64,000 bases of DNA, from assembly GCA_963580285.1 (NCBI GenBank), contig OY757010.1, forward strand, positions 220,677,234 to 220,741,233. Direction: 5' to 3'. This document shows positions 10,713-63,474 of this stretch, in pieces (within the stretch, counting starts at the first letter, position 1; each line of letters opens with the position of its first letter). The notes below the pieces were generated by a model. It ran no database searches. It worked only from the letters and a program-made list of their open reading frames with translations, and was not told where the DNA came from. This stretch comes from Lucinisca nassula. Its lineage: Eukaryota > Mollusca > Bivalvia > Lucinida > Lucinidae. The position numbers were made by a program, and so were the translations under genes.

Positions 10713-10920
10713 GTTGCAAATAGCCCAAAAAATATTGAAATGGCTATTTGCAAATAGCCATAAAACGTTAAAATGGCTATTTACAGTCAACTGCAAATAG
10801 CCAGAAAACGTTAAAATGGCTATTTGCAGTCAACTGCAGATAGCCAAAAAAAGTTAAAATGGCTATTTGCAGTCAACTGCAAATAGCCAGAAAACGTTAA
10901 AATGGCTATTTGCAGTCATT
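10713..10920 (+). repeat. 43-bp palindromic tandem array
   Basis: About four and a half units. Each contains the 28-base inverted repeat GGCTATTTGCAGT-CA-ACTGCAAATAGCC, separated by AAAACGTTAAAAT. The period is 43 bp. An array of the same unit in the opposite orientation is at 16154-16340. Every unit can form a cruciform or hairpin. Confidence 0.9.
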
Positions 10921-16153: not shown

Positions 16154-16340
16154 TGACTGCAAATAGCCATTTTAACGTTTTTTGGCTATTTGCAGTTGAC
16201 TGCAAATAGCCATTTTAACGTTTTTTGGCTATCTGCAGTTGACTGCAAATAGCCATTTTAACGTTTTCTGGCTATTTGCAGTTGACTGCAAATAGCCATT
16301 TTAACGTTTTTTGGCTATTTGCAGTTGACTGCAAATAGAC
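16154..16340 (-). repeat. 43-bp palindromic tandem array, inverted relative to 10713-10920
   Basis: Four units of TGACTGCAAATAGCCATTTT, AACGTTTTTT, GGCTATTTGCAGT (43 bp). It is the reverse complement of the array at 10713. A T-run and the ATATCTCCAAAATGGATAC block of the adjoining MITE follow directly. Confidence 0.9.
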
Positions 16341-24745: not shown

Positions 24746-25260
24746 TTTTTCCTCAGACTGCAGTAAAGTCACAAATATTGTATGGTTGGTGTGCTGCGGG
24801 GCCAGCGTTGGGGCTTATAATTGTGGGCAACAGGGACTGGGATCAGCCTGCGCATTTGCGCAGTCTGACTGGGACCCTCGCGGATTGCAACTGCCCTTCT
24901 ATATTTATAGTCTGCTGACTATTCAAAGAGAGATACGCGTAATCTCGTTTCTTAGTGAATAATTAAGCAGGCTGATGCGGTGGGTGTGTTGGCTCATGTA
25001 GTATATGCTCATCTCTGGTCTAGAGGTTGATGAGTGGGCTGAGTTAATGCGGATTGCATGAGAGGGTTAGGGTATATGATTGGCACCACTCTCGGTTGCA
25101 TTATATTGTACCCTCGGTGTGAAATTAATATTTAATGAAATGAGGAGCATATACTTTATAATAAAGTTTTGTTTGATTGATTGATTTGGCGTTTATCATC
25201 CCCGTCAACACTGTAAAAAGGTCATTTTGGGAGTAGGGTATATTTGCAACACACAACATG
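24746..25260. other. non-coding stretch with SINE D fragment
   Basis: GATCAGCCTGCGCATTTGCG at 24841-24860 is an imperfect GC palindrome. At 25187-25235 the minus-strand end of SINE D is visible (ATCCCCGTCAACACTGTAA). No gene is seen. Confidence 0.4.
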
Positions 25261-25264
25261 ATGT

Positions 25265-25322
25265 CGCTCGTGGGAACAGTCGTTCGCCGGAACAAAGTGT
25301 CCGTGGTGGGAACACTGGAAAT
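25265..25322 (-). repeat. monomer-like sequence outside the left foldback arm
   Basis: CGTGGGAACAGTCGTTCGCC and AAGTGTCCGTGGTGGGAACA resemble the 42-bp monomer of the foldback array (GTGTCC..GGTGGGAACAGTC). They also mirror the segment just outside the right arm at 42886-42940. Confidence 0.55.
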
Positions 25323-25483
25323 TAGCAGTTGTAGATACAGAAAACCATAAAATTTGGGTTATCTTTGCATATTAATTTAAATGTATCGTGTTCTATTCTC
25401 TTCATTTGGGTCAAGCGAATAACAGTCGTCGTTTATTAAAAGTTATTTATTTTTATGACTGTTATGAAATTTGATAACGCCTC

Positions 25484-25777
25484 GCATTTTTGTTGAATAG
25501 TTGGCGTGTCATACTAAGTTATTTATAAGACTTTCAAGGGGCGTAACAAATCAAAACAAACCAAAAAAATCAACACTCTGCATATTTTGCAATAGTTTGG
25601 TTAATCACTTTAATTTTGATTAAAGGATTTCAATTAAAAAATACATAAAAATATGCCTAACATAAAGTTTTATGAATCTATTTCAGTTTGTATTGGTGAC
25701 AAAATATTTGCTGGTAATGAACCTTTTCATAGTTGAAATTATTTTGATACTAATAGTAAGTTGCGGTCCTCCGCGAA
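25484..25777 (+). repeat. foldback left arm, outer segment
   Basis: About 290 bp mirrored at 42596-42887 with few differences. It includes AATATGCCTAACATAAAG, TTTGCTGGTAATGAACC and TTTTGATACTAATAGTAAG. It ends at CCGCGAA (25771-25777), the site where insertions have split this arm. Confidence 0.88.
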
Positions 25778-25993
25778 CGGCTTAGGACAAACGCTGTTCC
25801 TTGGGTGCGATTTGTGCCTTCCTACGATTAAGAGTTCGGTATTTTCCCTTTGGTCAGCTGACACCTGTCGAATTGGCAAGTGCCAGCACATTGGAGGCCC
25901 TGGGAAGAGCAGTTCATAAACTAATCCCATTTAGCGAGATGGGGTGCTTCTAGCGCCCGGTTACCTTACAAAATCTATCAAGTCAAGTCAAGT
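25778..25993 (+). mobile_element. short retroposon-like insert with (AGTCA)n tail
   Basis: Flanked by TCCGCGAACGG on both sides (25770-25780 and 25993-26003). It ends in TCAAGTCAAGTCAAGT. Its body (TCAGCTGACACCTGTC, GGCAAGTGCCAGCACATTGG AGGCCCTGGGAAGAG, GCGCCCGGTTACCTTA) is a diverged copy of a module that is also a fixed part of both foldback arms (29262-29402 and 42450-42575). Confidence 0.7.
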
Positions 25994-26339
25994 CCGCGAA
26001 CGGCCCCGCAAGGAGGGAACTAAAACTGACAGCACTAGGATACCAAGGGGAGATAAACGCGATTTCTTTGCTCAGTCTAATGTCACAGGAAATGAGGGAC
26101 GCGGTTTGCAATTTCTTTGAGAAAACAAACTACCTGGACAAAATATAGGGGAAAGCTAAGGGCGCAGACTAAATTTATTGCACTGTTACGAGAGACACAC
26201 CCCGTACGAGGTTACACACAAGCATGCCTGAAACCAAAACCGTTACAGACCCGATTTCAGTAACAATAAATGATTTAACCGCACCTTAGACGCTACCAAC
26301 CAAAAAGGAGCGTAGTGATCAAAGGGCGGCCGTCTCACG

Positions 26340-26870
26340 GCAAAAAGGGGAACAAAGTCAACGGTAGGCACTGTGGTTTGCGGCCTCGGCTTTGCACTTA
26401 GGAGTGCCTAACGGTGACAGCGATCCCTGGATCACTGTGAGAAGACCATAACAGAACGGGGCATGGACCCACCACAAGGAAAATCCATAGCCCCGACCCA
26501 CCCTCCAAAGGGGTGTGGCAAGCGAGAGGTTAAGACGAGGTGTAGCGTTGTGGTTGCGGCCCACTGGCTTTGCACTTATGAGCGCTGCACCAAAATCCTA
26601 GCTGATCGGGAGCCACACTGCCCGAAATAGGATCACACGAGAACACGCCGGAACTGGGCATGGATCCATCACAAGGAAAATCCATCGCCCGGCCTCTCCG
26701 GAGGGGGGAAGGCAAACGGGAAATCAGGACGAGATGTAACGCTGGGGTTTGCGGTCTTAGGACTTTGGCACTGAGCAGCGTTGCGTCAAAATCCTGGCTG
26801 ATCGAGAGCCACACAACCCAAAGGAGAACGGCACACCAACACACTAGCAAACAAAAGGCTCTCCTTCAGG
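26340..26870 (-). repeat. three-copy tandem repeat, about 180-190 bp
   Basis: CGAGGTGTAGCG..GTGGTTGCGG, GGCTTTGCACTTA, TCCTAGCTGATCGGGAGCCA and CATGGATCCATCACAAGGAA AATCCAT recur near 26366, 26537 and 26729 with moderate divergence. Confidence 0.8.
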
Positions 26871-27044
26871 AATGCACATAGATTAGTGGGACAGAAATAA
26901 GAAACAATAGGCCTTATCACATCTCTTTGTTTTTCTTTTTTTTTTTCGCTTTCGAATAAAGGATGTACATTATAAGGTTACCCAAACGGAATGATCTGGG
27001 GGCCACAAAAGGACCCTTTTATAAACACCTGACTAGCATAAAAA

Positions 27045-27357
27045 TCACAGGAAGGCTCTCTCTAAGCACACATGGTATTGCTTCTGTCCCTCTCTTGACA
27101 AATGAATACGGTCCCTATAATAGTGCCTGTGGAGGCGGCCATCGCTGTCCCAACTTTGCCTTCGGAAAATATGAAACGCTGTCCCACAAGTCAACATCAT
27201 AGCTCGCCACGCGCATACCACCATGGCCGAAAAACCGAACCTCGCCTGGTACATCAAACAGCCCTCGGTACTGCCCTTGTCGTTTAACATAAGAATCACC
27301 AAAAAAACAGCAAATCGCGCCATGATCGTAATTAAAACGGACGGTCAAGACGACCAT
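27045..27357 (-). pseudogene. SGNH/GDSL-hydrolase remnant of a retroelement
   Basis: Two overlapping minus-strand frames divide one protein. Frame 27115-27357 has the block I motif FFGDSYVKRQGQYRG, then VRFFGHGGMRV, the usual continuation in transposon-borne SGNH hydrolases. Frame 27045-27323 ends with YRDRIHLSREGQKQY, the block V D-x-x-H catalytic pair (Asp and His). The GxND block III between them is missing, so there is both a frameshift and an internal deletion. In CR1-like ORF1 and Ngaro elements such esterases are thought to help element particles or membrane interaction, but the role is unproven. This copy cannot be active. Confidence 0.7.
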
Positions 27358-29241
27358 ATATTTATACAGATAAGGGAAATAAACTAACTAACTAGGGCAT
27401 GACTTAGCGGGACCCTGAAGGAGGACATCAACACACAACCACCCACGCAAAACTAAAACAACATACATCCACCCACGCAATGCTCAATTAGGTAGATAAA
27501 GCGATAGTTGTAGAATAGTTGTAGAGTAGGAATCCCGTAGAGAGGATAGTATAGGAAAAGAGAGATAAAAAATCTGGAGATAGAAGAAGAAGAAGAAGAG
27601 TTTAGTTCCCAAAAAGCGATTTCAAACATTGTTAACTGTAAATATGACACATAAAAACAAGATCGCATAGGAGTGCTCGACTGCGCACATGCGCAGGCGG
27701 ACGCTTGTAAGCGACCTATGAATTTGTACTAACTGCATTGCTAACGAGATCGGCACACGATATCTCGGGCCCTCAAACGACTAGGTAGGAATACAAATCC
27801 TCCTATGGTGCCTTCCATCAAGTAGGATTTGATAATGACATGTAAACATGGCGACTCAGAATGACCCACTTACGGTCCCACAGAATATGACATCCTACGT
27901 GGAGGAGGGCACCACATTTTCCTAACTTTAACAAAAAAATGCAGAAAAGGAGATTGACCTACTTCCACATCCTCCGCGATAGAGGTCACCCACAAACTAA
28001 AATAAACACGAACTTGGGCCCGAGACGGCGGAGGCCGTCACACTATACTATATGTTGTATGTACAGAATAAACAAAAATCACAAAATATAATCTACAAGA
28101 ACAACCTTGCAGGTACAAAAACTGTCCTACCCAGCATAAGAGAGCGGGTGGGCTTGCCCCAAAACGGACAACACCATCTTTAAAGCACAAGAAAAACAAA
28201 CACGACAGGTCCGTGGCGGGGCGAGCACATCCGCCTGCATATATACTCAATAAGCTGGGGGCACAGATCAAATAATGTAAAAATGTACATACGTTACAAC
28301 AATATGCAAAAATCAAACAAAAAAAATAAAAAACAAAAATACCAATATCAAAATTGATACAAAAAGCGTAGACGACATCCATAGACATGGTGCTGGCGTG
28401 AGGGTGTAGATGCGGCTGAAGCTACAAGCTAGAAGAAAGAAATGGATGGACTCTACAATTTTGTGGTGCAAATAAGCACCACAAAATGGCTAAAAAACTT
28501 TGTCTCGAATCCCCTGATTGAATATAAGGTGCATAACACGTAACATGGAAACGTGTATAGCAATCTTTAGAAAGGTCTTCCAAATCGCAATGAAACTTTC
28601 AAACAAAATTAACTGCTAAACGATCCCCTTAATGATAAGTTCAAACTCGGAGCCTACCCTGTTACACAAAACAACCCACACCCCTTTGCGGCAAACCGCA
28701 AAAACCCAAGGCACAGCACTGCTATAACTTAAACGCAGTGCAATCACGCAGCCAAACCTTTAGAATGGAGTTCCAAATTACTACAACTAAACTATGTTGC
28801 ACAAAAACAAAGGCTCACATTGGAACTGTGCAACATATCCACAGCCCTTGAAATATGAAGCACACCTAGCCCAGAAACTCCTACATTTAAAGATGCCCTT
28901 TAGCGACAGGACACATGTACTCCTGAAGCAGACGGGAAGACAAAATATAAGCCCCACCGAGACCTGGAAAGGTCACGGCACCGTTTCACAAACCTCTCAG
29001 GACGGAGCTCGGCGATTGGCTACAGGGCAAGGGGATGCCCGTGGGCTCGGAGACACCTGAGACGTGAGACGACAAACATGGACGGACGGGACTGGAGCCG
29101 AGCGATGGTCTCCCTGTTCACCGGCAACGGGGAATAGGGGTACCACCGAACGGCTACGGTGTAGTGCCAGCATGGATTCGTTCCCTAGGACCCCACCAGC
29201 TGACGACCCGCGACACGTGGAAACTGGAAAACAACAACAAT
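27358..29241. other. rest of the 3.2-kb insertion, non-coding
   Basis: A 116-codon minus-strand frame at 28038-28388 is Cys/Phe-rich with no recognised domain. A GC-richer part follows at 28990-29240. The plus-strand DNA is A-rich with many CACAA words. No other element gene is seen. Confidence 0.4.
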
Positions 29242-30050
29242 CCGCGAATGAAGTCACCTAACTCCCAATCGGCTAGCTGATAACTGTCAAGCAGACAGGA
29301 GTCAGCATATTGGCAGCCTAGGGAAAAGAGCAGTACCTCCAACTAATCCCAGCTGGCGAACTGGGGGTAGCCCCTATGTGCCCTTGGCGCCCGGTTACCT
29401 TAAAAACATCCGTCAGTCATCTATTTATTTTGCATCAGGACAAAGAAGAAAAACAACGTTGAATTCGAAGGGATGTTTTTTATTGTATCGTGATCCCAAA
29501 TGAATATCAAAGGAGTCATTAAAATGTCCATTTAAAGAAGCATTTAACCCAGCTAATTAAAAATCAATTAGTCCTTACAAAAGAAACATTCTGACTAAAA
29601 GACAAAAATTATTCTATTGTGGAAGCAGGCTACAAACCGCATACAAATCCATGCACTTTCCACTTGTCTGGAGCAAAATAATCCGTAAACAAAATTTGCC
29701 GCATGACGTTAAATTAAACTGGAAATTTCTTCTGACGTAACGTCAACTTTCAACGTCCTTTTCCACGTTTTACGCTGATACTCGTAACCGCTGATACTCG
29801 TTTTCAGCATTTCTTTTAGGGCTACTGATGAGGCCTTGATGGCCGAAACAAGCTTGTCTGGCCCAAACAACAAATGGATTCTGCTATTTTCGTTTTTGAA
29901 TGCGTTCATGGTTCATGGTTCTCAAAGGGCATCCCTTTTAGCCTTATTTAATACACATGATTTAAAGCAAACTAGACATTTGAACAATTTCCTGCAATTG
30001 TTTTTAGCGATTGGTGGATTCCATACATGGACTCCTTTAATAGATTGTTC
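29242..30050 (+). repeat. foldback left arm, inner segment
   Basis: Mirrored at about 41855-42602. From the outside it holds a conserved module with AACTGTCAAGCAGACAGGAG and GGCGCCCGGTTACCTTA. An AT-rich part follows with AATTCGAAGGGATGTTTTTT, then a hammerhead ribozyme. Last comes CTCAAAGGGCATCCCTTTTA GCC, which parallels CTCAAAGGATAACCCTTTTA in the dispersed hammerhead modules. Confidence 0.85.
29819..29864 (+). ncRNA. hammerhead ribozyme motif, left foldback arm
   Basis: Stem I strand GGGCTA, core CTGATGA, stem II GGCC-TTGAT-GGCC, core GAAA, stem III CAAGCTTG (a palindrome giving three pairs and a two-base loop), cleavage triplet GTC (29856-29858), and stem I partner TGGCCC. All conserved core bases are present, and stem I pairs over six positions with one G-U. 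Cleavage would fall after 29858. Such a short palindromic stem III is typical of Penelope-like elements and retrozymes, where two ribozymes act as a dimer. The array starts about 190 bp downstream. Confidence 0.87.
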
Positions 30051-33000
30051 CCAGCAAGGACAATTTATATAGGTATGTTAAATAGACTGTTCCCACCAAG
30101 GACACTTTCTGTAGGTATGTTTTATAGACTGTTCCAAGCACAGACACTTCTGTAGGTATGTTTATAGACTGTTCCCAGCCCGGACAATTATATAGGTATG
30201 TTAAATAGACTGTTCCCACCAAGGACACTTTTCGTAGTTATGTTTAGTAGACATTTTCCAGCACGGACACTTTCTAAAGCTATCATTAAAAGACTGGTCC
30301 TAGCATGGACACTTTCTGTAGGTATATTTAAAAGACTGTTCCCACCACGGACACTTTCTGTAGTACGCTTCATAGTCTGTTCCCAGCAAGGAAACTTTCT
30401 GTAGCTATGTTTAATAGACTGTTCCCATCAAGGACACTTTCTGTAGGTATGTTTAATATATTGTTCCCAGCACGGATACTTCTGTTGGTATGTTTAATAG
30501 ACTGTTTCCAACAAGGACACTTTTATACGTATGTTTAATAAGAAGTTCCCACCAAGCACACTTTCTGTAGCTATGTTTAATAGACTGTTCCCAGCATGGA
30601 CACTTTTTGTAGCTATGTTTAATAGGCTGTTTCCAGCACGGACACTTCTGTATATATGTTTAATAGACTGTTTCCAACAAGGTCTCTTTCTATACGTATG
30701 TTTAATAAACTGTTCCCACCAAGGACACTTTCTGTAGTTATGTTTAATAGAATGTTCCCACCAAGGACACTTTCTGTAGCCATTTTTAACAGACTGTTCC
30801 CACTAAGGACACTTTTTGTAGCTATGTTTAATAGGCTGTTTCCAGCACGGACACTTCTGTATATATGTTTAATAGACTGTTTCCAACAAGGACTCTTTCT
30901 ATACGTATGTTTAATAAACTGTTCCCAACAAGGACACTTTCTGTAGCTATGTTTAATAGAATGTCCGCACCAAGGACACTTTCTGTAGCCGTTTTTAACA
31001 GACTGTTCCCACCAAGGACACTTCATGTAGCTATGTTTAATAGACTGTTCCCAGCATGGACACTTTTTGTAGTTATGTTTAATAGAATGTTCCCACCAAG
31101 GACACTTTCTGTAGACATTTTTAACAGACTGTTCCCACCAAGGACACTTCATGTAGCTATGTTTAATAGACTGTTCCCAGCATGGACACTTCATGTAGCT
31201 ATGTTTAATAGACTGTTCCCAGCATGGACACTTTTTGTAGCTATGTTTAATAGAATGTTCCCACCAAGGACACTTTCTGTAGCCGTTTTTAACAGACTGT
31301 TCCCACCAAGGACACTTCATGTAGCTATGTTTAATAGACTGTTCCCAGCATGGACATTTTTTGTAGCTATGTTTAATAGAATGTTCCCACCAAGGACACT
31401 TTCTGTAGCCATTTTTAACAGACTGTTCCCACCAAGGACACTTCATGTAGCTATGTTTAATAGACTGTTCCCAGCATGGACACTTTTTGTAGCTATGTTT
31501 AATAGGCTGTTTCCAGCACGGACACTTCTGTATATATGTTTAATAGACTGTTTCCAACAAGGACTCTTTCTATACGTATGTATAATAAACTGTTCCCAAC
31601 AAGGACACTTTCTGTAGCTATGTTTTAATAGAATGTCCCCACCAAGGACACTTTCTGTAGCCGTTTTTAACAGACTGTTCCCACCAAGGACACTTCATGT
31701 AGCTATGTTTAATAGACTGTTCCCAGCATGGACACTTTTTGTAGTTATGTTTAAGAGAATGTTCCCACCAAGGACACTTTCTGTAGACATTTTTAACAGA
31801 CTGTTCCCACCAAGGACACTTCATGTAGCTATGTTTAATAGACTGTTCCCAGCATGGACACTTCATGTAGCTATGTTTAATAGACTGTTCCAAGCATGGA
31901 CACTTTTTGTAGCTATGTTTAATAGAATGTTCCCACCAAGGACACTTTCTGTAGCCGTTTTTAACAGACTGTTCCCACCAAGGACACTTCATGTAGCTAT
32001 GTTTAATAAACTGTTCCCAGCATGGACACTTTTTGTAGCTATGTTTAATAGAATGTTCCCACCAAGGACACTTTCTGTAGCCATTTTTAACAGACTGTTC
32101 CCACCAAGGACACTTCATGTAGCTATGTTAAATAGACTGTTCCCAGCATGGACACTTTTTGTAGCTATGTTTAATAGGCTGTTTCCAGCACGGACACTTC
32201 TGTATATATGTTTAATAGACTGTTTCCAACAAGGACTCTTTCTATACGTATGTTTAATAAACTGTTCCCACCAAGGACACTTTCTGTAGCTATGTTTAAT
32301 AGAATGTGCCCACCAAGGACACTTTCTGTAGCCATTTTAACAGACTGTTCCCACCAAGGACACTTCATGTAGCTATGTTTAATAGACTGTTCCCAGCATG
32401 GACACTTTTTGTAGCTATGTTTAATAGGCTGTTTCCAGCACGGACACTTCTGTATATATGTTTAATAGACTGTTTCCAACCAAGATTCTTTCTATACGTA
32501 TGTTTAATAAACTGTTCCCACCAAGGACACTTTCTGTAGCTATGTTTAATAGAATGTCCCCACCAAGTACACTTTCTGTAGCCGTTTTTAACAGACTGTT
32601 CCCACCAAGGACACTTCATGTAGCTATGTTTAATAGAATGTTCCCAGCATGGACACTTTTTGTAGCTATGTTTAATAGGCTGTTTCCAGCACGGACACTT
32701 CTGTATATATGTTTAATAGACTGTTTGCAACAAGGACTCTTTCTATACATATGTTTAATAAACTGTTCCCACCAAGGACACTTTCTGTAGCTATGTTTAA
32801 TAGAATGTCCCCACCAAGGACACTATCTGTAGCCATGTTTAATAGACTGTTGGCACCAAGGACACTTTCTGTAATTATGTTTAATAGACTGTTCCCGACA
32901 AGGATACTTTCTGTAGCTATGAATATTAGTCTCTTCGCAGCACGGACACTTCTGAAGGTATGTTCAATAGACGGGCGGACACTCCTGTAGGTATGTTTAA

Positions 33001-33190
33001 TAGACTGTTCCCACCAAGGACACTGTCTGAACCTATGTCAGGTAGACTGTTCCCATCACGGAAACTCACTGGAGCTATGATTTATAGACTGTTCCCATCA
33101 CGTACACTTCTGTAGGTATGTTTAATAGACTGTTCCCAGCACGGACGGTTTCTGAAGCTATGTTCAATACACTGTTCCCACCAAAGACAC
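30051..33190 (+). repeat. 42-bp tandem array, left (plus orientation)
   Basis: About 75 monomers of TGTTCCCACCAAGGACACTT, TCTGTAGCTATGTTTAATA, GAC (42 bp). Variant monomers recur in a fixed order, for example TTTCCAACAAGGACTCTTTC and TTCCAGCACGGACACTTCTG (a 41-bp type), so the array is built of multi-monomer blocks. Blocks repeat near 30881, 31550, 32222, 32466 and 32717. Because 42 is 14 codons, frames such as MFNRLFPPRTLSVA stay open for up to 250 residues. The same DNA is open on the other strand, so I treat this as non-coding. Confidence 0.95.
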
Positions 33191-33797
33191 TTGTTTCATA
33201 TGTCGGGGGCTGGCAAAACGTATATGTGACGGGACAACACGAGGGAACCTCGAATCTATGTCCACTTGTGGGGCACTAACGCAAAGGAAATTCTAAGATA
33301 CTTAGAATCCTTTACAATATTTATATGGAATAAGTCTAATATTTATAAACAGCACTGGTTACATAATTTTACAAAGACAAACTTAAAGGGACAGTTGACT
33401 CGCAATCTATTCCACTTAGGTTAAGACAGAATGAAAATTAGTCTGGGCCCAATTAAATTTCTGTCTTAATACAAGTGGAATACACTTGAATCACACTTGA
33501 ATTACACATGAAGTACACACACTCATTCACACCCTCACATACTTAACATAGTGTTCTTTCTCCCTTCCTGTTGATGATAAGGACCTGATGAGTGTTTATG
33601 GCACCATAATGTTTTATATAAACTTTATATTAACCAGTATATTCACAGTAATGACTGTTTCACCAACCAGTTTTTGCCTCTGTGTTATACCGTGGCGATT
33701 ACATCTATAGCTGCTCACCGCCGAATAAAATGTAGTAACAGGGGTGGGGGACACATAAACCCCTTTACATCATTCTATGCTCATCATCCATATCATC
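33191..33797. other. foldback loop, first unique part
   Basis: Contains ACTTAAAGGGACAGTTGACT (33384) and a weak inverted pair, ATTCCACTTAGGTTAAGACAG with CTGTCTTAATACAAGTGGAAT (33409 and 33460). A run of TACACTTGAATCACACTTGA words follows. No gene is recognised. Confidence 0.5.
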
Positions 33798-33893
33798 ACT
33801 GCCTCATATCACTGATGCCTCGTATCACCGTTGTCTTATATCAACGATGCCTCATATTAACGATGCCTTATATCAACAATGCCTCATATCAAT
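33798..33893 (+). repeat. 17-bp tandem repeat (ATGCCTCATATCAACG)
   Basis: Six imperfect units of about 16-17 bp. Confidence 0.85.
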
Positions 33894-33949
33894 GATTGAC
33901 GTCAGGTGAGCGATTCAGGCTGCAATGTTGATATTCTATAAGTGTAACT

Positions 33950-34038
33950 GCAATGTCTCCAACACGGACAGTGGGCGCCCACGAAGGACTGTTCCGGACA
34001 AGGTCATAGTGTTGCGTGTTGCAATTATATACTGTAGC
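33950..34038 (+). repeat. 89-bp direct repeat, loop copy
   Basis: GCAATGTCTCCAACACGGAC, ACGAAGGACTGTTCCGGACA, AGGTCATAGTGTTGCGTGTT and TATATACTGTAGC match 42886-42974 with only a few differences. The other copy abuts the right end of the foldback. Confidence 0.88.
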
Positions 34039-34224
34039 CTGTATTACGTGCTATTCGACGTTTAACATTGACAGAGTGCAAATGCCATTTGTAGTTTTGC
34101 TTTTTTGTGCTTCATGTTAGCACGTATGGACATGAAGTTGTAAAACAATAAAACAACGGGCTAAATCCCGCCCACAATATCGCAACATTTTCTGACTCCG
34201 AGAGAACGCATTGTTTGAAGAAAG

Positions 34225-34615
34225 GATAGGCATGCCCTCTGCCAGGCTGATCAGGCTCGGAAGAGCCCAGGGGGACCTAAGGTCCGTGTCAATGAATGCG
34301 TCTTAAGGAACAGGAGAATATATGATTTAAGGTTGAGGATCCGAACGGTTTCTTATATAAGGACTTTCATGATAAGAGGGGTGGGTATGCCCCAGGGGAC
34401 CCCGGTGTATCCAAGGTCAATGTCGTTAAATGCATCTTACCATAAGAAACAAGAATACATTGTTTATGGGTGGGGATCATAAGCAGTTTCCGAGTTATTG
34501 CACATTTTATGAAATGAAGGGGTAGGACATGCCCACGGGTGACCCATTGGGAACCAAGATCTATGTCAGTATATGTGGTTTATCATAAGGAACAAGAATA
34601 TAATATAGTCTATAG
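34225..34615 (+). repeat. direct repeat of about 165 bp, two and a half copies
   Basis: GGGGGACCTAAGGTCCGTGT, GGGACCCCGGTGTATCCAAG GTCAATGTC and GGGTGACCCATTGGGAACCA AGATCTATGTC mark the copies. Each is followed by AAGGAACA.GAATA. Confidence 0.7.
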
Positions 34616-34681
34616 AGTGTTCCATTAATTCTGTCACTGTTTCGTGACCATACTGCACTAAAAGAGTAAGGGGTGCAATAA

Positions 34682-34745
34682 AAAACAACAAGAGGACCAT
34701 TATGGTCCTGTATCGCTAACCTGAGTATAAGTCTGTTCAACACTT
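34682..34745 (+). repeat. AGGACCAT-type repeat fragment in the loop
   Basis: AGAGGACCATTATGGTCCTG TATCGCTAACCT matches ACAGGACCATTGGTCCTGAA TCGCTCACCT at 36963-37000. Each contains a small palindrome. Confidence 0.65.
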
Positions 34746-34779
34746 CCTCAGAATAAACTATTTGAAGTTTTCCACAATT

Positions 34780-35600
34780 GGCCATTATGACCTACATAGT
34801 GGAACCAGGTGAACGAATCTGAACAAGGTCGATGTCAGGATGTATCTGACCGAGTGTGATCAAAATCCATGAGAAAAATCCGTTTGAAAATTTCCACCAT
34901 GTCAGCCATAATATGACCTGCTTATGAACTTGAGCAGAAACATTTGAACAAATCTGAGAAAGATCAATGTCAGGATGCTAATGACCAAGTTTGATCAAAT
35001 TCCAATCAAAGGTTCATGAGAAGTTGTTTGAAGTTTTTTATGATGTCAGCCATTTTGACCTACTTATGCACTGGATAAATTTGCATAAATTTGAGACTGG
35101 TCCATAATTATATGGATGCTTCTGACCCAGTTTCATCAAATTCTGTTTATCTGTTCATGAGAAAAAGCCATTTTATTTTTTTCAAGATGACAGCCATTTT
35201 GACCTACTTATGCAGTAAAGTGAACCATTTGCATAAATTTGAGACTGGTCCAAATAAGGATGCTTCTGACCAAGTTTGATCTGTTCATGAGAAAAAGCCA
35301 TGTAAAGTTATTCCAAGATGGCGGCCATAATGACCTACTTATTCATTGGAGAGGGCTCATTTGAATAAAACTGAGAAAGGTTGATGCCAGGATGCTTCAG
35401 GTCAAGTTTGGACATTAGTTTTTGAAGAGCTGTTCTTTGAACAAAATACACTTCGTAAATACAAACTATGTCACTGTGACCTAATTTCACTACAGATTTG
35501 GATGATATGAATAATCTTGAGAACCAAGGTCCCAACGATGTCTCATACCAATTTTGAGTCAACTATACCAAGCTTTTTCGGATACTAAGTCAATTTACTT
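34780..35600 (+). repeat. tandem repeat of about 140 bp, loop left half
   Basis: Units marked by ATGTCAGCCAT(A/T)(A/T)TGACCTACTT near 34906, 35046, 35190 and 35325. Each is followed by AAATTTGAGA..GGTC, GGATGCTTCTGACCAAGTTT and GATC. The same unit occurs in reverse at 35940-36465. Confidence 0.8.
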
Positions 35601-35614
35601 GTTTTGCTATTTTT

Positions 35615-35644
35615 AGCTCACTGAGACGAAGTCTCAGTGTAGCT
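35615..35644 (+). repeat. AGCT-terminal hairpin at the palindrome tip
   Basis: AGCTCACTGAGAC-GAA-GTCTCAGTGTAGCT, followed by ATTGTGATCAC and a CCGTCCGTCCGTCGTCCG run. It is the same kind of end as at 14092. Confidence 0.75.
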
Positions 35645-36465
35645 ATTGTGATCACTTTTAGTCTGTCCGGCCGTCCGTCCGTCGTCCGTAAACACTTGTT
35701 CAAACGACTTCTTCTCCGAAACCACTGCACCTACGACTCTCAAAATTTATATGCAGCATGATCAGACTCGAGACTTACAAGTTTGCGAAAATTATCCGAG
35801 TCGACAATCCAAGATGGCCGCCGTTACTAAAAATAGCAAAAACAACTAAATCGACTTTTCTCTAGAACCGCATGGTATAATTGGCTGATTTTTGGTATTG
35901 AGGTTCGATGGGCACTAGGTTCTCAAATTTATATACAAAAACTCTGTAGTGGAATTAGGTCACGATGACCTACTTTATATTTACGACATATATTTTGTTC
36001 AAATGGCATCTCCTCGAAAACCAATGCTCAGATTTTGACCAAACTTGATCTGAAGCATTCTGATATCAGCATTTCTCAGATTTGTTCAAATGGTTCCGCC
36101 TCGATGCATAAGTAGGTCATAATGGAAAAACTTCAAACTGCTAATTCTCGTGAACTGGTGAAAGGGATTTGATCAGACATGGTCAGAAGCATCCATGCAT
36201 CAACCAGTATTAGATATATTCAAATGGTTCCACTCCGATGCATAAGTAGGTCAAAATGGTCGATATCGGGAAAACTTCAAACCGCTGATTCTCGTGAATG
36301 GATGAACAGAATTTGATTAAACATGGTCAGCAGCATCCTTACATCAACCTGTATCAGATTTATTCAAATGGTTCCACTCCAATGCATAACTAGGTGATAA
36401 TGGCCGACATCATAAAAAATTTTAAACTGCTGATTCTCTTTAATGGATGAACAGAATTGGATCAA
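35645..36465 (-). repeat. loop right half, inverted copies of the 140-bp unit
   Basis: CATAAGTAGGTCATAATGG near 36108, CATAAGTAGGTCAAAATGG near 36240 and CATAACTAGGTGATAATGG near 36384 are the reverse of the units at 34780-35600. The loop is therefore a smaller palindrome centred near 35.7-35.9 kb, inside the large one. The unit GGATCAAACTTGGAACC joins directly to the right array. Confidence 0.75.
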
Positions 36466-36469
36466 ACTT

Positions 36470-39400
36470 GGAACCGTCTATTAAACATACCTACAGCAGT
36501 GTCCGTCGTAGGAAGAGAAAGTGTCCTTGTCGGGAACAGTCTATTAAGCATAACTACAGAAAGTGCCCTTGGTGGGAACAGTCTATTAAACAGACCTAAA
36601 GAAGTGTCCGTGCTGGGAACAGTCTATAAAGCATACCTAAAGAAGTGTCCTTGGTGGGAACAGTCCATTAAAATACCTAAAGAAGTGTCCGTGTTGGGAA
36701 CAGTCTATTAAACATAACTACAGAAAGTGTCCTTGGTGGGAACAGTCTATTAAACATACCTAAAGAAGTGTCCGTGCTGGGAGCAGTCTATTAAACATAA
36801 CTACAGAAAGTGTCCTTGGTAGGAACAGTCTATTAAACATACCTAAAGAAGTGTCTATGGTTGGAACAGTCTATTAAACATACCTAAATAAGTGTCCGTG
36901 CTTGGAACAGTCTATTAAACATACTTTAAGAAGTGTCCGTGCTGGGAATAGTCTATTAAACACCACAGGACCATTGGTCCTGAATCGCTCACCTAACGTC
37001 AGTCAGCCCAGCGGTTCCAGAGGAGAAGACATTTAAAAATATGTTGACACACAGACACACGACAGACAAACTCTGACCACCCTATAAGCTCACCAATGAG
37101 CCTTCGGCTCAGGTGAGCTAATAACTACAAAAAGTGTCCTTGGTGGCAACAGTCTATTAAACATGGCTACAGAAAGTGTCCTTGGTGGGAACATTCTATT
37201 AAACATAGCTACAGAAAGTGTCCTTGGTGGGAACAGTTTATTAAACATACGTATAGAAAGAGTCCTTGTTTGAAACAGTCTATTAAACATATATACAGAA
37301 GTGTCCGTGCTGGAAACAGCCTATTAAACATAGCTACAAAAAGTGTCTATGCTGGGAACAGTCTATTAAACATAGCTACATGAAGTGTCCTTGGTGGGAA
37401 CAGTCTGTTAAAAATGGCTACAGAAAGGTTCCTTGGTGGGAACATTCTATTAAACATAGCTACAAAAAGTATCCATGCTGGGAACAGTCTATTAAACATA
37501 GCTATATGAAGTGTCCTTGGTGGGAACAGTCTGTTAAAAACGGCTACAGAAAGTGTCCTTTGTGGGGCATTCTATTAAACATAGCTACAGAAAGTGTCCT
37601 TGGTGGGAACAGTTTATTAAACATACGTATAGAAAGAATCCTTGTTGGAAACAGTCTATTAAACATATATACAGAAGTGTCCGTGCTGGAAACAGCCTAT
37701 TAAACATAGCTACAAAAAGTGTCCATGCTGGGAACAGTCTATTAAACATAGCTACATGAAGTGTCCTTGGTGGGAACAGTCTGTTAAAAACGGCTACAGA
37801 AAGTGTCCTTGGTGGGGACATTCTATTCAACATAGCTACAGAGAGTGTCCTTGGTGGCTAACAGTTTATTAAACATACGTATAGAAAGAGTCCTTGTTGG
37901 AAACAGTCTATTAAACATATATACAGAAGTGTCCGTACTGGAAACAGCCTATTAAACATAGCTACAAAAAGTGACCATGCTGGGAACAGTCTATTAAACA
38001 TAGCTACATGAAGTGTCCTTGGTGGGAACAGTCTGTTAAAAATGGCTACAGAGAGTGTCCTTGGTGGGAACATTCTATTAAATATAGCTACAAAAGGTGT
38101 CCATGCTGGGAACATTCTATAAAACATAGCTACATGAAGTGTCCTTGGTGGGAACAGTATGTTAAAAACGGCTACATAAAGTGTCCTTGGTGGGGACATT
38201 CTATTAAACATAGCTACAGAAAGTGTCCTTGGTGGGAACAGTTTATTAAACATACGTATAGAAAGAGTCCTTGTTGGAAACAGTCTATTAAACATATAAA
38301 CAGACGTGTCCGTGCTGGAAACAGCCTATTAAACATAGCTACAAAAAGTGTCCATGCTGGGAACAGTCTATTAAACATAGCTACATGAAGTGTCCTTGGT
38401 GGGAACAGTCTGTTAAAAATGGCTACAGAAAGTGTCCTTGGTGGGAACATTCTATTAAATATAGCTACAAAAGGTGTCCATGCTGGGAACATTCTATTAA
38501 ACATAGCTACATGAAGTGTCCTTGGTGGGAACAGTATGTTAAAAACGACTACAGAAAGTGTCCTTGGTGGGGACATTCTATTAAACATAGCTACAGAAAG
38601 TGTCCTTGGTGGGAACAGTTTATTAAACATACGTATAGAAAGAGTCCTTGTTGGAAACAGTCTATTAAACATATATACAGAAGTGTCCGTGCTGGAAACA
38701 ACCTATTAAACATAGCTACAAAAAGTGTCCATGCTGGGAACAATCTATTAAACATAGCTACATGAAGTGTCCTTGGTGGGAACAGTCTGTTAAAAATGGC
38801 TACAGAAAGTGTCCTTGGTGGGAAAATTCTATTTAACATAGCTACAAAAAGTGTCCATGCTGGGAACATTCTATTAAACATAGCTACATGAAGTGTCCTT
38901 GGTGGGAACAGTCTGTTAAAAACGGCTACAGAAAGTGTCCTTGGTGGGGACATTCTATTAAGCATAGCTACAAAAAGTGTCCTTGGTGGGAACAGTTTAT
39001 TAAACATACGTATAGAAAAAGTCCTTGTTAGAAACAGTCTATTAAACAATATACAGAAGTGTCCTTGGTGGAAACAGCCTATTAAACATAGCTACAAAAA
39101 GTGTCCATGCTGGGAACAGTCTATTAAACATAGCTACATGAAGTGTCCTTTGTGGGAACAGTCTGTTAAAAACGGCTACAGAAAGTGTCCTTGGTGGGGA
39201 CATTCTATTAAGCATAGCTACAAAAAGTGTCCTTGGTGGGAACAGTTTATTAAACATACGTATAGAAAGAGTCCTTGTTGGAAACAGTCTATTAAACATA
39301 TATACAGAAGTGTCCGTGCTGGAAACAGCCTATTAAACATAGCTACAAAAAGTGTCCATGCTGGGAACAGTCTATTAAACATAGCTACATGCAGTGTCCT

Positions 39401-41850
39401 TGGTGGGAACAGTCTGTTAAAAACGGCTAAAAAAAGTGTCCATGGTGGGGACATTCTATTTAACATAGCTACAGAGAGTGTCCTTGGTGGGAACAGTTTA
39501 TTAAACATATGTATAGAAAGAGTCCTTGTTGGAAACAGTCTATTAAACATATATACAGAAGTGTCTGTGCTGGAAACAGCCTATTAAACATAGCTTCAAA
39601 AAGTGTCCATGCTGGGAACAGTCTATTAAACATAGCTACATGAAGTGTCCTTGGTGGAACAGTCTGTTAAAAATGGCTACAGAAAGTGTCCTTGGTGGGA
39701 ACATTCTATTAAACATAGCTACAAAAAGTGTCCATGCTTGGAACATTCTATTAAACATAGCTACATGATGTGTCCTTGGTGGGAACAGTCTGTTAAAAAC
39801 GGCTACAGAAAGTGTCGTTGGTGGGGACTTTCTATTAAGCATAGCTACAGAAAGTGTCCTTGGTGGGAACAGTTTACTAAACATACGTATAGAAAAAGTC
39901 CTTGTTAGAAACAGTCTATTAAACAATATACAGAAGTGTCCTTGCTGGAAACAGCCTATTAAACATAGCTACAAAAAGTGTCCATGCTGGGAACAGTCTA
40001 TTAAACATAGCTACATGAAGTGTCCTTTGTGGGAACAGTCTGTTAAAAACGGCTACAGAAAGTGTCCTTGGTGGGGACATTCTATTAAACATAGCTACAG
40101 AAAGTGTCCTTGGTGGGAGCAGTTTATTAAACATACGTATAGAAAGAGTCCTTGTTGGAAACAGTCTATTAAACATATATACAGAAGTGTCCGTGCTGGA
40201 AACAGACTATTAAACATAGCTACAAAAAGTGTCCATGCTGGGAACAGTCTATTAAACATAGCTACATGCAGTGTCCTTGGTGGGAACAGTCTGTTAAAAA
40301 CGGCTACAGAAAGTGTCCATGGTGGGGACATTCTATTAAACATAGCTACAGAGAGTGTCCTTGGTGGGAACAGTTTATTAAACATATGTATAGAAAGTGT
40401 CCTTGTTGGAAACAGTCTATTTAACATATATACAGAAGTGTCCGTGCTGGAAACAGCCTATTAAACATAGCTACAAAAAGTGTCCATGCTGGGAACAGTC
40501 TATTAAACATAGCTACAGAAAGTGTCCTTGGTGGGAACAGTCTGTTAAAAACGGCTACAGAAAGTGTCCTTGGTGGGAACATTCTATTAAACATAGCTAC
40601 AAAAAGTGTCCATGCTTGGAACAGTCTATTAAACATAGCTACATGAAGTGTCCATGCTGGGAACAGTCTATTAAACATAGCTACATGAAGTGTCCTTGGT
40701 GGGAACAGTCTGTTAAAAATGTCTACAGAAAGTGTCCTTGGTGGGAACATTCTATTAAACATAACTACAAAAAGTGTCCATGCTGGGAACAGTCTATTAA
40801 ACATAGCTACATGAAGTGTCCTTGGTGGGAACAGTCTGTTAAAAACGGCTACAGAAAGTGTCCTTGGTGGGGACATTCTATTAAACATAGCTACAGAAAG
40901 TGTCCTTGGTGGGAACAGTTTATTAAACATACGTATAGAAAGAGTCCTTGTTGGAAACAGTCTATTAAACATATATACAGAAGTGTCTGTGCTAGAAACA
41001 GCCTATTAAACATAGCTGCAAAAAGTATCCATGCTGGGAACAGTCTATTAAACATAGCTACATGAAGTGTCCTTGGTGGGAACAATCTGTTATAAATGGC
41101 TACAGAAAGTGTCCTTGGTGGGAACATTCTATAAAACATAGCTACAGAAAGTGTCCTTGGTGAGAAAAGTCTATTAAACATAGCAACAGTAAGTGTCCAT
41201 GCTTGGAACAGTCTATTAAACATAGCTACAGAAAGTGTGCTTGGTGGGAACTTCTTATTAAACATACGTATAGACAGTGTCCTTGTTGGAAACAGTCTAT
41301 TAAACATACCAACAGAAGTATCCGTGCTGCAAACAATCTATTAAAATACCTTCAGAAAGTGTCCTTGGTGTGAACAGTCTATTAACCATATCTACAGAAA
41401 TGTCCGTGCTGGGAACAATCTATCAAACATACCTACAGAAAGTGTCCTTGATGGGAACAGTCTATTAAACATAGCTTCAGAAAGTGTCCGTGCTGGGAAC
41501 AGACTATGAAGCGTACTACAGAAAGTGTCCGTGGTGGGAACAGTCTTTTAAATATACCTACAGAAAGTGTCCATGCTGGGACCAGTCTTTTAATGAAAGC
41601 TTTAGAAAGTGTCCGTGCTGGATAATGTCTACTACCCATAACTACGAAAAGTGTCCTTGGTGGGAACAGTCTATTTAACATACCTATATAATTGTCCGGG
41701 CTGGGAACAGTCTATAAACATACCTACAGAAGTGTCTGTGCTTGGAACAGTCTATAAAACATACCTACAGAAAGTGTCCTTGGTGGGAACAGTCTATTAA
41801 ACATACCTATATAAATTGTCCTTGCTGGGAACAATCTATTAAAGGAGTCC
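36470..41850 (-). repeat. 42-bp tandem array, right (minus orientation) with higher-order repeats
   Basis: About 125 monomers, the reverse complement of the left array. The marker monomer GAAAGAGTCCTTGTTGGAAA recurs near 37261, 37638, 37888, 38265, 38643, 39019, 39270, 39521, 39897, 40147, 40398, 40943 and 41277. The steps are about 377, 251, 545 and 335 bp, which equal 9, 6, 13 and 8 monomers less one base (one 41-bp monomer per block). Two adjacent 377-bp blocks at 38.0-38.7 kb are nearly identical. The open repeat frame KCPWWEQSIKHSYR is a by-product of the 14-codon period. Confidence 0.95.
36963..37121 (-). mobile_element. AGCT-ended repeat fragment inside the right array
   Basis: Breaks the monomer series. 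Starts CAGGACCATTGGTCCTGAAT, has CACACAGACACACGACAGAC, and ends with the hairpin AGCTCACCAATGAGCC-TTCG-GCTCAGGTGAGCT at 37087-37119. Confidence 0.8.
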
Positions 41851-42602
41851 ATGTATAGAATGCACCAATCGCTTAAAACAATTGCAGGAAATTGTTCAAA
41901 TGTCTAGTTTGCTTTAAATCATGTGTATTAAATAAGGCTAAAAGGGATGCCCTTTGAGAACCATGAACGCATTCAAAAACGAAAATAGCAGAATCCATTT
42001 GTTGTTTGGGCCAGACAAGCTTGTTTCGGCCATCAAGGCCTCATCAGTAGCCCTAAAGAAATGCTGAAAATGAGTATCAGCGGTTACGAGTATCAGCGTA
42101 AAACGTGGAAAATGACGTCAATTTTCAGTTTAATTTAACGTCATGCGGCAAATTTTGATTACGGATTATTTTGCTCCAGACAAGTGGAAAGTGTATGGAT
42201 TTGTATGCGGTTTGAAGCCTGCTTCCACAATAGAATAATTTTTGTCTTTTAGTCAGAATGTTTCTTCTTTTGTAAGGACTAATTGATTCTTAATTAGCTG
42301 GGTTAAATGCTTCTTTAAATGGACATTTTACTGACTCCTTTGATATTCATTTGGGATCACGATACAATAAAAACATCCCTTCGAATTCAACGTTGTTCTT
42401 CTTCTTTGTCCTGATGCAAAATAAATAGATGACTTGACGGTTGTTTTAAGGTAACCGGGCGCCAAGGGCACATAGGGGCTACCCCCAGTTCGCCAGCTGG
42501 GATTAGTTGTAGGTCTTTTCCCTAGGCTGCCAATATGCTGACTCCTGTATGCCTGACAGTTATCAGCTAGCCGATTGGGAGTTGGGTGACTTCTTTCGCG
42601 GT
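41851..42602 (-). repeat. foldback right arm, inner segment
   Basis: Mirror of 29242-30050, without any insertion. It keeps the uninterrupted sequence around CCGCGAA (42596-42602 on the minus strand) that was the target of the left-arm insertions. Confidence 0.88.
42008..42053 (-). ncRNA. hammerhead ribozyme motif, right foldback arm
   Basis: On the minus strand: GGGCTA, CTGATGA, GGCC-TTGAT-GGCC, GAAA, CAAGCTTG, GTC, TGGCCC. It is identical in sequence to the left-arm ribozyme. Cleavage would fall between 42014 and 42013. The two ribozymes point toward each other across about 12 kb, each followed by its array. Confidence 0.87.
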
Positions 42603-42887
42603 GGACCGCAACTTACTATTAGTATCAAAATAATTTAAACTATGAAAAGGTTTATTACCAGCAAATATTTTGTCACCAATACAAACTGGAATAGATTCAT
42701 AAAACTTTATGTTAGGCATATTTTTATGTATTTTTTTATTGAAATCCTTTAATCAAAATTAAAGTGATTAACCAAACTATTGCAAAAATATGCAGAGTGT
42801 TGATTTTTTGTTTGTTTTGATTTGTTACGCCCCTTGAAAGTCTTATAAATAACTTAGTATGACACGCCAACTATTCAACAGAAATGC
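42596..42887 (-). repeat. foldback right arm, outer segment
   Basis: Inverted copy of 25484-25777. It ends CTATTCAACAGAAATGC, after which similarity to the immediate left flank stops. Confidence 0.87.
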
Positions 42888-42974
42888 AATGTCCCCAACA
42901 CGGACAGTGTGTGCCCACGAAGGACTGTTCCGGACAAGGTCATAGTGTTGCGTGTTGCAATTATATACTGTAGC
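42886..42974 (+). repeat. 89-bp direct repeat, outside copy
   Basis: Begins at the right edge of the foldback and matches 33950-34038 in the loop. It carries monomer-like words (CACGGACAGT, GGACTGTTCCGGACAAGG). Confidence 0.85.
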
Positions 42975-43077
42975 ATTTTGGAGACGTTGCTTTAAATTTT
43001 TGTGGGACTTTTACCCGACATTGAGATGAAATGACTTCTCAAGCCCTGCCGCCTAATGAAACCAATAGGGTTTATAA

Positions 43078-44430: not shown

Positions 44431-44612
44431 TTTTCTTGTCCTTTGGGATCATTGATTCCATTATGGAATTTTGACAATATCTGAGGCTAACTGATGAGGC
44501 CTTATGGCCGAAACTAGCTAGTCTGGCCCAGAAAACATGTACACTCCATATTTTTCAGTTCTGTGGTGTATTCCTTGCTTCCAAAGGATAACCCTTTAAT
44601 AGAACATACTGT
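44418..44612 (+). mobile_element. hammerhead-bearing Penelope/retrozyme-like module, 5'-truncated
   Basis: AGTGTAGATTGTATTTTCTT GTCCTTTGGGATCATTGATT, then the ribozyme, then ACATGTACACTCCATATTTT TCAG and CAAAGGATAACCCTTT. It is collinear with 47041-47486 and the reverse of 58238-58615. It lacks the GTGTGGCGGC..GTAAAACG 5' block of those copies. Confidence 0.75.
44485..44529 (+). ncRNA. hammerhead ribozyme motif, stem I damaged
   Basis: CTGATGA (44491-44497), GGCC-TTAT-GGCC, GAAA, CTAGCTAG, GTC (44521-44523), TGGCCC. The core is intact. The 5' stem I strand reads GGCTAA instead of GGGTCA, so stem I pairs poorly without a bulge. Confidence 0.75.
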
Positions 44613-47075: not shown

Positions 47076-47311
47076 ACGGGCCTCCGTGGCCTAGTGGATA
47101 AGAGCGCTGACTCTTAGTCATTAGGTCTCTCACCGCCGTAGGTTCGAGCCTCGCTCGGGCCACGTGTGAGACGCCAAGTTCTGCAACGGAAGGTCAGGTG
47201 GTTTTTCTCCGGGTACTCCGGTTTTCGCCCACCTCTGATTAACGATCGGCTCGATATGAGTGAAATGATCTTGAAAGGGCCGTAAAACCCAAACCAAAAA
47301 AAAAAAAAAAA
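47076..47311 (+). mobile_element. SINE family B, full copy with 13-bp duplication
   Basis: ACGGGCCTCCGTGGCCTAGT GGATAAGAGCGCTGACTCTT, GTAGGTTCGAGCCTCGC (box B), GTTCTGCAACGGAAGGTCAG, GGTACTCCGGTTTTCGCCCA, GAAATGATCTTGAAAGGGCC GTAAAACC, then poly-A. CCTTTGGGATCAT is at 47063-47075 and 47312-47324. Confidence 0.92.
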
Positions 47312-47356
47312 CCTTTGGGATCATTGATTCCATTTTGGAATTTGGAAAATATCTTA

Positions 47357-47402
47357 GGGTCACTGATGAGGCCTAATTGGCCGAAACTAGCTAGTCTGGC
47401 TC
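47357..47402 (+). ncRNA. hammerhead ribozyme motif
   Basis: GGGTCA, CTGATGA, GGCC-TAATT-GGCC, GAAA, CTAGCTAG, GTC (47394-47396), TGGCTC. Stem I pairs over six positions with two G-U pairs, stem II is four pairs, and the core is complete. Confidence 0.83.
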
Positions 47403-47536
47403 AGAAAACACGTGCACACCATATTTTTCAGTTCTGTGGTGTATTCTTTGCTTCCAAAGGATAACCCTTTTATAGAACATATTAAAGGGGATCACAATTC
47501 TATAGGCATGATTTCGTAATGAAAATACAATTTTAA

Positions 47537-58235: not shown

Positions 58236-58308
58236 TCTATAAAAGGGTTATACTTTGAGAGCAAAAATACACCACAGAACGAAAAAATATGGAGTGTACA
58301 TGATTTCT

Positions 58309-58614: not shown

Positions 58615-58615
58615 T

Positions 58616-63472: not shown

Positions 63473-63474
63473 AA

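What the first reader, a model, noticed from the sequence alone, without database searches (positions are those of the whole stretch)
25484..42887. A 17.4-kb foldback element with ribozymes and arrays in its inverted arms
Outer arms, inner arms and tandem arrays are all mirrored around a loop at about 33.2-36.5 kb. The order in each arm is the same: outer unique DNA, a GCGCCCGGTTACC module, a hammerhead, then the 42-bp array. FB and TU elements have tandem repeats in long inverted ends, but I know of no described foldback that also carries paired hammerhead ribozymes. No transposase is visible, so how it moves, or whether it arose by inverted duplication, is open.
Basis: partly seen in the sequence, partly recalled or inferred. 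Interest (0 to 1): 0.88.

Follow-up and report, generated by a model that had tools for sequence, protein, structure and literature searches.

The report
Giant foldback transposon carrying paired ribozymes
A very large jumping DNA element, folded like a hairpin and present in many very similar copies in one animal genome, usually carries a self-cutting RNA motif in each of its two mirrored arms, a combination I did not find described.

Summary
The mirrored structure is real, and it is a mobile element, not an artefact or a local duplication. Eight of eight elements whose two flanks I read (window included) have a perfect 8-bp target duplication, all different. Paired ends give elements of 17.7-24.4 kb. 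Nineteen left ends, taken from the best hits, differ by 0.8% on average. The left arm's 160-bp and 3.2-kb excess belongs to the element; one retroposon piece in it is a later insert. The hammerhead is present in 11 of 14 arms read across its place; the core is intact in 10. It resembles retrozymes, common in this genome, and shows no significant constraint: most likely a captured passenger. Left arms of the window and C5 elements differ by 0.9%, the window's two arms by 3.2%, so the two-armed form is older than the spread of these copies. The core lies in opposite orientations in different copies. No transposase was found in the frames tested; superfamily open. New variant of a known kind.

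The parts
25223..25230 (.). left target-site duplication CATTTTGG
   Evidence: identical 8 bp flush with both ends
25231..25323 (+). left terminal module, begins GAGTAGGGTATATTTGCAACAC; contains a diverged array motif
   Evidence: 19 of 20 fetched loci (window copy included) carry it at 98-100%; flanks differ upstream of it
25324..25483 (+). left-only 160-bp segment
   Evidence: 19 of 20 fetched loci, window copy included
25484..25777 (+). outer arm, left
   Evidence: 97% to 42887-42595 rc; 40 of 40 scored genome hits 98-100%
25782..25994 (+). retroposon (SINE-like) insert with 10-bp duplication CCGCGAACGG (25772-25781 / 25995-26004) and (TCAAG)n tail
   Evidence: sequence; of 18 loci with this junction 14 lack it, 4 have a copy of some length
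26005..29241 (+). left-only A-rich segment of 3.2 kb, no recognisable coding in the frames tested
   Evidence: its start or more in 18 of 20 fetched loci; whole in L042; Pfam 0 hits for 7 frames
29242..29407 (+). SINE-like repeat of the left arm, ends in GCGCCCGGTTACCTTA
   Evidence: aligns with 42601-42440 rc and with 25782-25994
29408..30030 (+). hammerhead-bearing arm segment, left
   Evidence: 99.0% in L042, 96.0% in L029
29818..29870 (+). type I hammerhead motif, left; core 29825-29858, predicted cleavage after C29858
30036..33192 (+). 42-bp tandem array, left
33203..33943 (+). core segment loopA; 44 matches at 95-100% in the genome
33944..34038 (-). internal copy of the right terminal module (95-96%)
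34039..36470 (+). rest of core: diverged palindromic 144-bp repeats and other dispersed repeats
   Evidence: parts present in L053 and L055
36516..41843 (-). 42-bp tandem array, right, with a short dispersed repeat inserted at about 36963-37118
41849..42439 (-). hammerhead-bearing arm segment, right
42014..42047 (-). type I hammerhead core, right
42440..42601 (-). SINE-like repeat of the right arm
42595..42887 (-). outer arm, right
42882..42973 (-). right terminal module, begins CTACAGTATATAATTGCAACAC
   Evidence: 40 of 40 scored genome hits 98-100% over outer arm plus module
42974..42981 (.). right target-site duplication CATTTTGG

Best explanation
This is one full copy of a dispersed, apparently non-autonomous foldback-type DNA transposon of about 18-24 kb. 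Shown: exact ends, 8-bp target duplications, mirrored arms of terminal module - outer arm - SINE-like repeat - hammerhead segment - 42-bp array, and a core that occurs in both orientations. Inferred: an unidentified transposase, supplied by another element, recognises the roughly 93-bp terminal modules and moves the whole; because the 42-bp array shares a motif with those modules, the arrays are probably rows of extra transposase sites, as found for Galileo. The hammerhead came from a retrozyme-like element that landed in an arm; an inverted duplication then gave both arms one, and transposition copied the pair. The ribozyme is most likely a passenger. Recombination between the inverted arms turned the core around in the lineage of the window copy.
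For: Dispersed copies: 40 of 40 scored hits at 98-100% for the outer arm (523 first-look candidates) and for the right end (860 candidates). Left and right ends on one contig pair up within 40 kb in 9 pairings (8 distinct full-size elements, window included) against 0.01 expected by chance. Target duplications 8 of 8, each different: CATTTTGG, CATTTAAC, GCAAGGAC, ATATAAAG, CGTAAATC, ACGTTTTT, GACTAGGC, TACAAAAG; the last is of a 1.28-kb deletion copy with both ends, L033. L042 repeats window 25993-33195 at 96% over 7.2 kb, hammerhead and array included. Hammerhead in 11 of 14 arms read across its place, both arms in 4 of 4 full-size elements where both were read. Differences outside the motif: 17 of 535 between the window's arms, 5 of 569 between window and C5 left arms; against the window left arm, 3 of 501 in four other left arms and 16 of 685 in six right arms (summed). 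Core orientation: of 11 core places with an end within 25 kb, 2 as in the window, 9 opposite, plus two more opposite by reading (L053; L056, edge only). Module profile 27.4 bits in the arrays; 0 of 60 column-shuffled profiles reach that.
Against: No Pfam domain in 10 frames tested (the 7 longest of 25231-29241 and the 3 longest of 33203-36470); array frames were not searched; no autonomous partner identified. The two terminal modules are only 68% alike and the tips (GAGTAG / CTACAG) are not a perfect inverted repeat. Only 8 full-size elements were paired, since each search scored about 40 hits, the best ones, so identities are biased high. Binding sites and passenger status are inference. The 9 opposite cores include a duplicated pair; the 2 same-as-window cases are sisters sharing an insert. 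L029's right-type arm is about equally far from both window arms.
Confidence: 0.88

Rival explanations
1. The ribozyme pair has a job in the element: both point inwards, so a transcript entering from either flank is cut between the outer arm and the array, which would free host read-through RNA from the hairpin or release element RNA for circularisation.
For: Both arms have it in 4 of 4 full-size elements where both were read (window, C16, C298, C7); 8 of the 11 motifs are identical over 53 nt.
Against: Differences from the window left arm are 4 of 530 bases in the motif and 19 of 1186 in its flanks, Fisher p = 0.18: no significant constraint. One arm has a broken core (C9 right), one a stem I mismatch (C5 left), and three arms lack it: the right-type arm of L040 and both arms of the deletion copy L033. 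No expression data. Lowered from 0.12.
Confidence: 0.1
2. A local inverted duplication made by template switching, not a mobile element. I leaned to this before genome copies were available, because the 93-bp module inside the loop and the right end are 95% alike while the left end is 68% alike.
Against: Same layout at other loci with their own 8-bp duplications.
Confidence: 0.01
3. Assembly artefact: two haplotypes joined head to head.
For: Arm divergence of 2-3% would fit allelic difference.
Against: Arms end sharply on both sides, other loci repeat the layout, and the left arms of the window and C5 elements are closer to each other than the window's two arms are.
Confidence: 0.01
4. A giant retroelement (Penelope/Terminon kind) or a Helitron that happens to carry hammerheads.
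For: Such retroelements are known to carry hammerheads (PMC6431247, passages read).
Against: Constant 8-bp target duplications and exact, related termini; no domain in the 10 frames tested.
Confidence: 0.02

Closest known systems
Foldback elements such as Tetris of Drosophila virilis (PMC4079207; abstract and section 10 read)
   Same: Long inverted ends with an outer domain and inner tandem repeats, variable non-coding middle, no conserved open reading frames, target duplications of 8-10 bp, a shorter relative (DAIBAM) sharing the ends.
   Different: Tetris inverted ends reach 1.7 kb with 220-bp repeats; here the right arm spans 6.5 kb and the left 8.0 kb (about 3.6 kb of it without a mirror), repeats are 42 bp, elements 17.7-24.4 kb, and arms carry a hammerhead.
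Galileo, P superfamily (PMC3688188; passages including the abstract read)
   Same: Foldback-like long ends; [quoted passage not shown]
   Different: No THAP transposase seen in the frames tested; binding not tested; target duplication 8 bp (7 bp for Galileo, recalled).
Metazoan non-LTR retrozymes (PMC7229834; abstract and sections 13, 14, 17 read)
   Same: Type I hammerhead with short stem III; related units of about 170-260 bp lie elsewhere in this window and genome.
   Different: In the arms the motif is single, not in tandem units, and it moves with a DNA transposon.
Terminons / Penelope-like elements (PMC6431247; passages read)
   Same: Giant mobile elements with hammerheads.
   Different: Those encode reverse transcriptase; none seen here in the frames tested.

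Membership tests
Foldback-type DNA transposon | long inverted ends | tested here: met
Foldback-type DNA transposon | tandem repeats inside the inverted ends | tested here: met
Foldback-type DNA transposon | mobile, with target-site duplication of 8-10 bp | tested here: met
   8 bp in 8 of 8
Foldback-type DNA transposon | related transposase (superfamily) | tested here: inconclusive
   no domain in the 10 frames tested; no search for an autonomous partner was made
P superfamily (Galileo) | P-type transposase with THAP domain | tested here: inconclusive
   none in the 10 frames tested of this copy; a non-autonomous copy need not have one
Non-LTR retrozyme (for the hammerhead segment) | type I hammerhead core and three helices | tested here: met
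   but Rfam makes no call
Non-LTR retrozyme (for the hammerhead segment) | tandem units of 150-450 bp with a hammerhead each | tested here: not met
   one hammerhead per arm by the descriptor; segment 29410-30030 matches only its mirror and other hammerheads in the window
Non-LTR retrozyme (for the hammerhead segment) | sequence kinship outside the ribozyme | tested here: inconclusive
   downstream-only alignment to four units reached by 1 to 6 of 570 control stretches
Non-LTR retrozyme (for the hammerhead segment) | self-cleavage and circular RNA | not testable with these tools
   needs RNA
Penelope-like element / Terminon | reverse transcriptase | tested here: not met
   none in the 10 frames tested of this copy; frames in L042 and L053 are listed only, not searched

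The most novel reading that the evidence does not exclude
A class II DNA transposon has taken a hammerhead ribozyme into each arm and uses the inward-facing pair to cut transcripts that enter it from either side, an RNA-level guard that keeps the long hairpin from being read through as double-stranded RNA and so from being silenced.
Probability: 0.08. Interest if true: 0.92.

Novelty: new variant of a known kind. Interest (0 to 1): 0.72.

Why it matters
It shows that hammerheads can travel in DNA transposons, not only in retroelements, and gives a natural experiment: many similar copies, most arms read with a ribozyme in mirrored position, in a genome rich in retrozymes. At 18-24 kb it is also far larger than the foldbacks I compared it with, and its arrays make the idea of tandem repeats as rows of transposase sites directly testable. 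The two core orientations are a readable record of rearrangement between the arms.

Tried and rejected
Local inverted duplication by template switching: favoured for a while on the module divergences, dropped. Reading the 3.2-kb left part as a later retroposon insert with an 8-bp duplication: dropped, 18 of 20 loci have its start or more. The 14-residue repeats that the arrays would encode: all frames tend to be open because 42 is a multiple of 3; not pursued. Rfam for the hammerhead: no call. RNA folding of five hammerheads: the minimum-energy fold is not the hammerhead and z-scores are -0.74 to -1.99: no support. Covariation: one pair with a change on both sides, reached by 310 of 500 shuffles; weak. 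Viral and prokaryote collections: 0 matches for 3 patterns in viral contigs and 1 in genome contigs. Superfamily from tips and 8-bp duplications: left open; Zisupton and usually hAT also make 8 bp (PMC12730594, passages read). Paper searches bearing on whether a foldback or other DNA transposon with a hammerhead is in print: 20 of 34 papers listed; 25 of 101; 4 of 4; 20 of 40; 12 of 1,022; titles and starts of abstracts seen, passages of PMC6431247 read; none seen reports one, in this open-licence library only.
Full report
WHAT WAS CLAIMED AND WHAT IS THERE. The window comes from a 2.93-Gb unnamed assembly (C1:220677234-220741233), by its repeats an animal (recalled resemblance to mollusc repeats, not tested); I did not identify the species. 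The 41 array matches on the left are all on +, the 85 on the right all on -. The arms differ evenly by 2-3% from the outer arm into the first 427 bp of array, and array units keep the same order in both arms near the arm edge.

EXACT ENDS. Outside the stated ends lie two related modules of about 93 bp, at 25231-25323 and 42882-42973. In the genome they are the true termini: 19 of 20 fetched loci (window copy included) have the left module, and upstream of it the sequences differ from locus to locus except in one pair duplicated 102 kb apart. The tip is GAGTAG in 16 of these 19; L027 has CTACAG, L037 ATCTAG, and in L040 a right end abuts a left end directly. The right tip is CTACAG in the eight elements.

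IT MOVES. The outer arm gave 523 first-look candidates, of which 40 were scored, all 98-100%; the right end gave 860 candidates, 40 scored, all 98-100%. The scored ones are the best candidates, so these are neither copy numbers nor an unbiased age. Pairing left and right ends on opposite strands within 40 kb gives 9 pairings, 0.01 expected by chance; one uses a second, nested left end, leaving 8 full-size elements of 17.7 to 24.4 kb, two of them a duplicated pair whose length includes that nested piece. I read both flanks of 8 elements (seven full-size and the 1.28-kb copy L033): 8 of 8 have a perfect 8-bp duplication and all eight are different. The window's CATTTTGG taken alone, with free placement, was a 19-in-2000 event. 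Nineteen left ends of the best hits differ by 0.8% on average and 2.2% at most, so these copies spread recently.

WHAT BELONGS TO IT. I first took the 3.4-kb excess of the left arm for inserts. In fact the 160-bp piece is in 19 of 20 loci and the start of the 3.2-kb A-rich piece in 18 of 20; they are the normal left side. At the junction between outer arm and 3.2-kb piece, 14 of 18 loci have nothing inserted; 4 have a retroposon of one family at the same CCGCGAA site: the window copy and L030 with the same 213-bp piece, L023 with a longer one (91% alike over the shared part), L037 with about 55 bp. The SINE-like repeat of both arms (29242-29407, 42440-42601) is of that family and sits at the same motif. 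C16 (L030) also shares the window's core orientation and is a sister copy. The left 10 kb of the C5 element (L042) matches window 25993-33195 at 96% over 7.2 kb, with hammerhead and a longer array. The right arm of the C5 element has terminal module, outer arm and SINE-like repeat, the last split by another insert; I did not read as far as its hammerhead place.

THE CORE TURNS. Core segment 33203-33943 has 44 matches at 95-100% (359 candidates). Eleven of these places lie within 25 kb inside a known end: 2 are oriented as in the window (window and its sister C16), 9 the other way, two of the 9 being a duplicated pair. Reading the middle of the C5 element and one core edge of the C298 element gives two more of the other kind. 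Inversion by recombination between the inverted arms explains this; that is inference, and the window's orientation is the minority. Four further places have two core segments in opposite orientation with 94-97 bp between, a more palindromic variant that I could not read.

THE HAMMERHEADS. Both have the type I core, six pairs in stem I, four in stem II and a short stem III. The four relatives in the window outside the element, two of them degenerate, share a U-A where the arms have A-U in stem III; with six sequences the covariation statistics are weak. Rfam does not call them and energy folding does not favour the hammerhead. In the genome I read across the hammerhead place in 14 arms. Eleven have it: window left and right, C16 left and right, C298 left and right, C7 left and right, C5 left, C22 right (L029), C9 right. 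Three do not: the right-type arm of L040, where outer arm and array are joined by another repeat, and both arms of the 1.28-kb deletion copy L033. Two stretches (L060, L065) fell short of the place and say nothing. The core is intact in 10 of 11; C9 right has a changed core base, C5 left a mismatch in stem I, C22 right a changed stem III loop. Against the window left arm the motif has 4 differences in 530 bases and the flanks 19 in 1186 (p = 0.18): no proof of constraint. Outside the element, retrozyme-like repeats are common: matches in 10 of 21 sampled 10-kb stretches, all of contig C1, and 7 intact motifs by the descriptor in those 210 kb. The arm motif aligns with the window's units beyond the ribozyme only weakly. 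Hence: a captured retrozyme-like piece, duplicated with the arm.

ORDER OF EVENTS. Outside the motif, the left arms of the window and C5 elements differ by 5 of 569 bases, the two arms of the window element by 17 of 535. Over the shorter stretches, four other left arms together differ from the window left arm by 3 of 501, six right arms by 16 of 685. So the two-armed, two-ribozyme structure existed before these copies spread, and arms are not being evened out within each copy. L029 does not fit neatly: its right-type arm is about equally far (14 and 16 differences) from both window arms, so there is more than one sublineage.

HOW IT WORKS. With no domain found in the 10 frames tested (array frames not searched), it is probably moved in trans. 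The 42-bp arrays carry a motif shared with the terminal modules (27.4 bits; 0 of 60 shuffled profiles reach it). [quoted passage not shown] By analogy the arrays would be rows of transposase sites; this is inference, and the array units run opposite to the module within each arm.

WHAT IS KNOWN. Foldback elements with tandem repeats in the arms and 8-10 bp duplications are known, Tetris being close in layout (PMC4079207). Hammerheads are known from retrozymes (PMC7229834), Penelope-like elements and Terminons (PMC6431247, passages). My searches for a foldback or other DNA transposon with a hammerhead (partly capped listings) show no such report; they cover only an open-licence library. Verdict: a real, giant foldback transposon family, a new variant of a known kind; function of the ribozyme pair open.

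Noticed in passing
44440-44608, 47312-47485, 58210-58615: Retrozyme-like hammerhead units outside the element, the last one a dimer with about 260-bp period; the 47-kb one is split by a SINE (about 47076-47311). A second hammerhead type (CTACGTAGTA in stem III) occurs in the sampled stretches.
   Followed up: partly
25772-26004; L023, L037, L040: A retroposon family (ending GCGCCCGGTTACCTTA, tail TCAAG) sits at the same CCGCGAA site of the element in pieces of different length, 213, about 455 and about 55 bp, as if it were site-specific and 5'-truncating.
   Followed up: partly
10749-10918 and 16154-16338: A second mirrored pair of tandem arrays (43-bp units, 97% inverted identity, about 5.2 kb apart), perhaps another, smaller foldback element.
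   Followed up: no
28447-28567 (-): Sub-threshold Rfam match to a tRNA-like-structure pseudoknot family (TLS-PK4, 27.4 bits, E = 0.02, gathering score 80) in the left-only segment.
   Followed up: no
L040 about 1256/1257: A right terminus and a left terminus of the family abut directly, as if two elements were fused end to end or a circle junction had been inserted.
   Followed up: partly
genome C13:46.584M, C2:37.095M, C6:61.671M, C5:123.802M: Core segments in opposite orientation 94-97 bp apart: a palindromic core variant of the family.
   Followed up: no
60681-63616 (-): Broken LINE with endonuclease and reverse transcriptase pieces (Pfam Exo_endo_phos_2, RVT_1).
   Followed up: partly
L038 and L039: Two element copies 102 kb apart on C9 with the same left flank, each with a further left end nested 1.66 kb inside.
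   Followed up: partly
14218-15241: Tandem array of 145-bp units, 7 copies.
   Followed up: no
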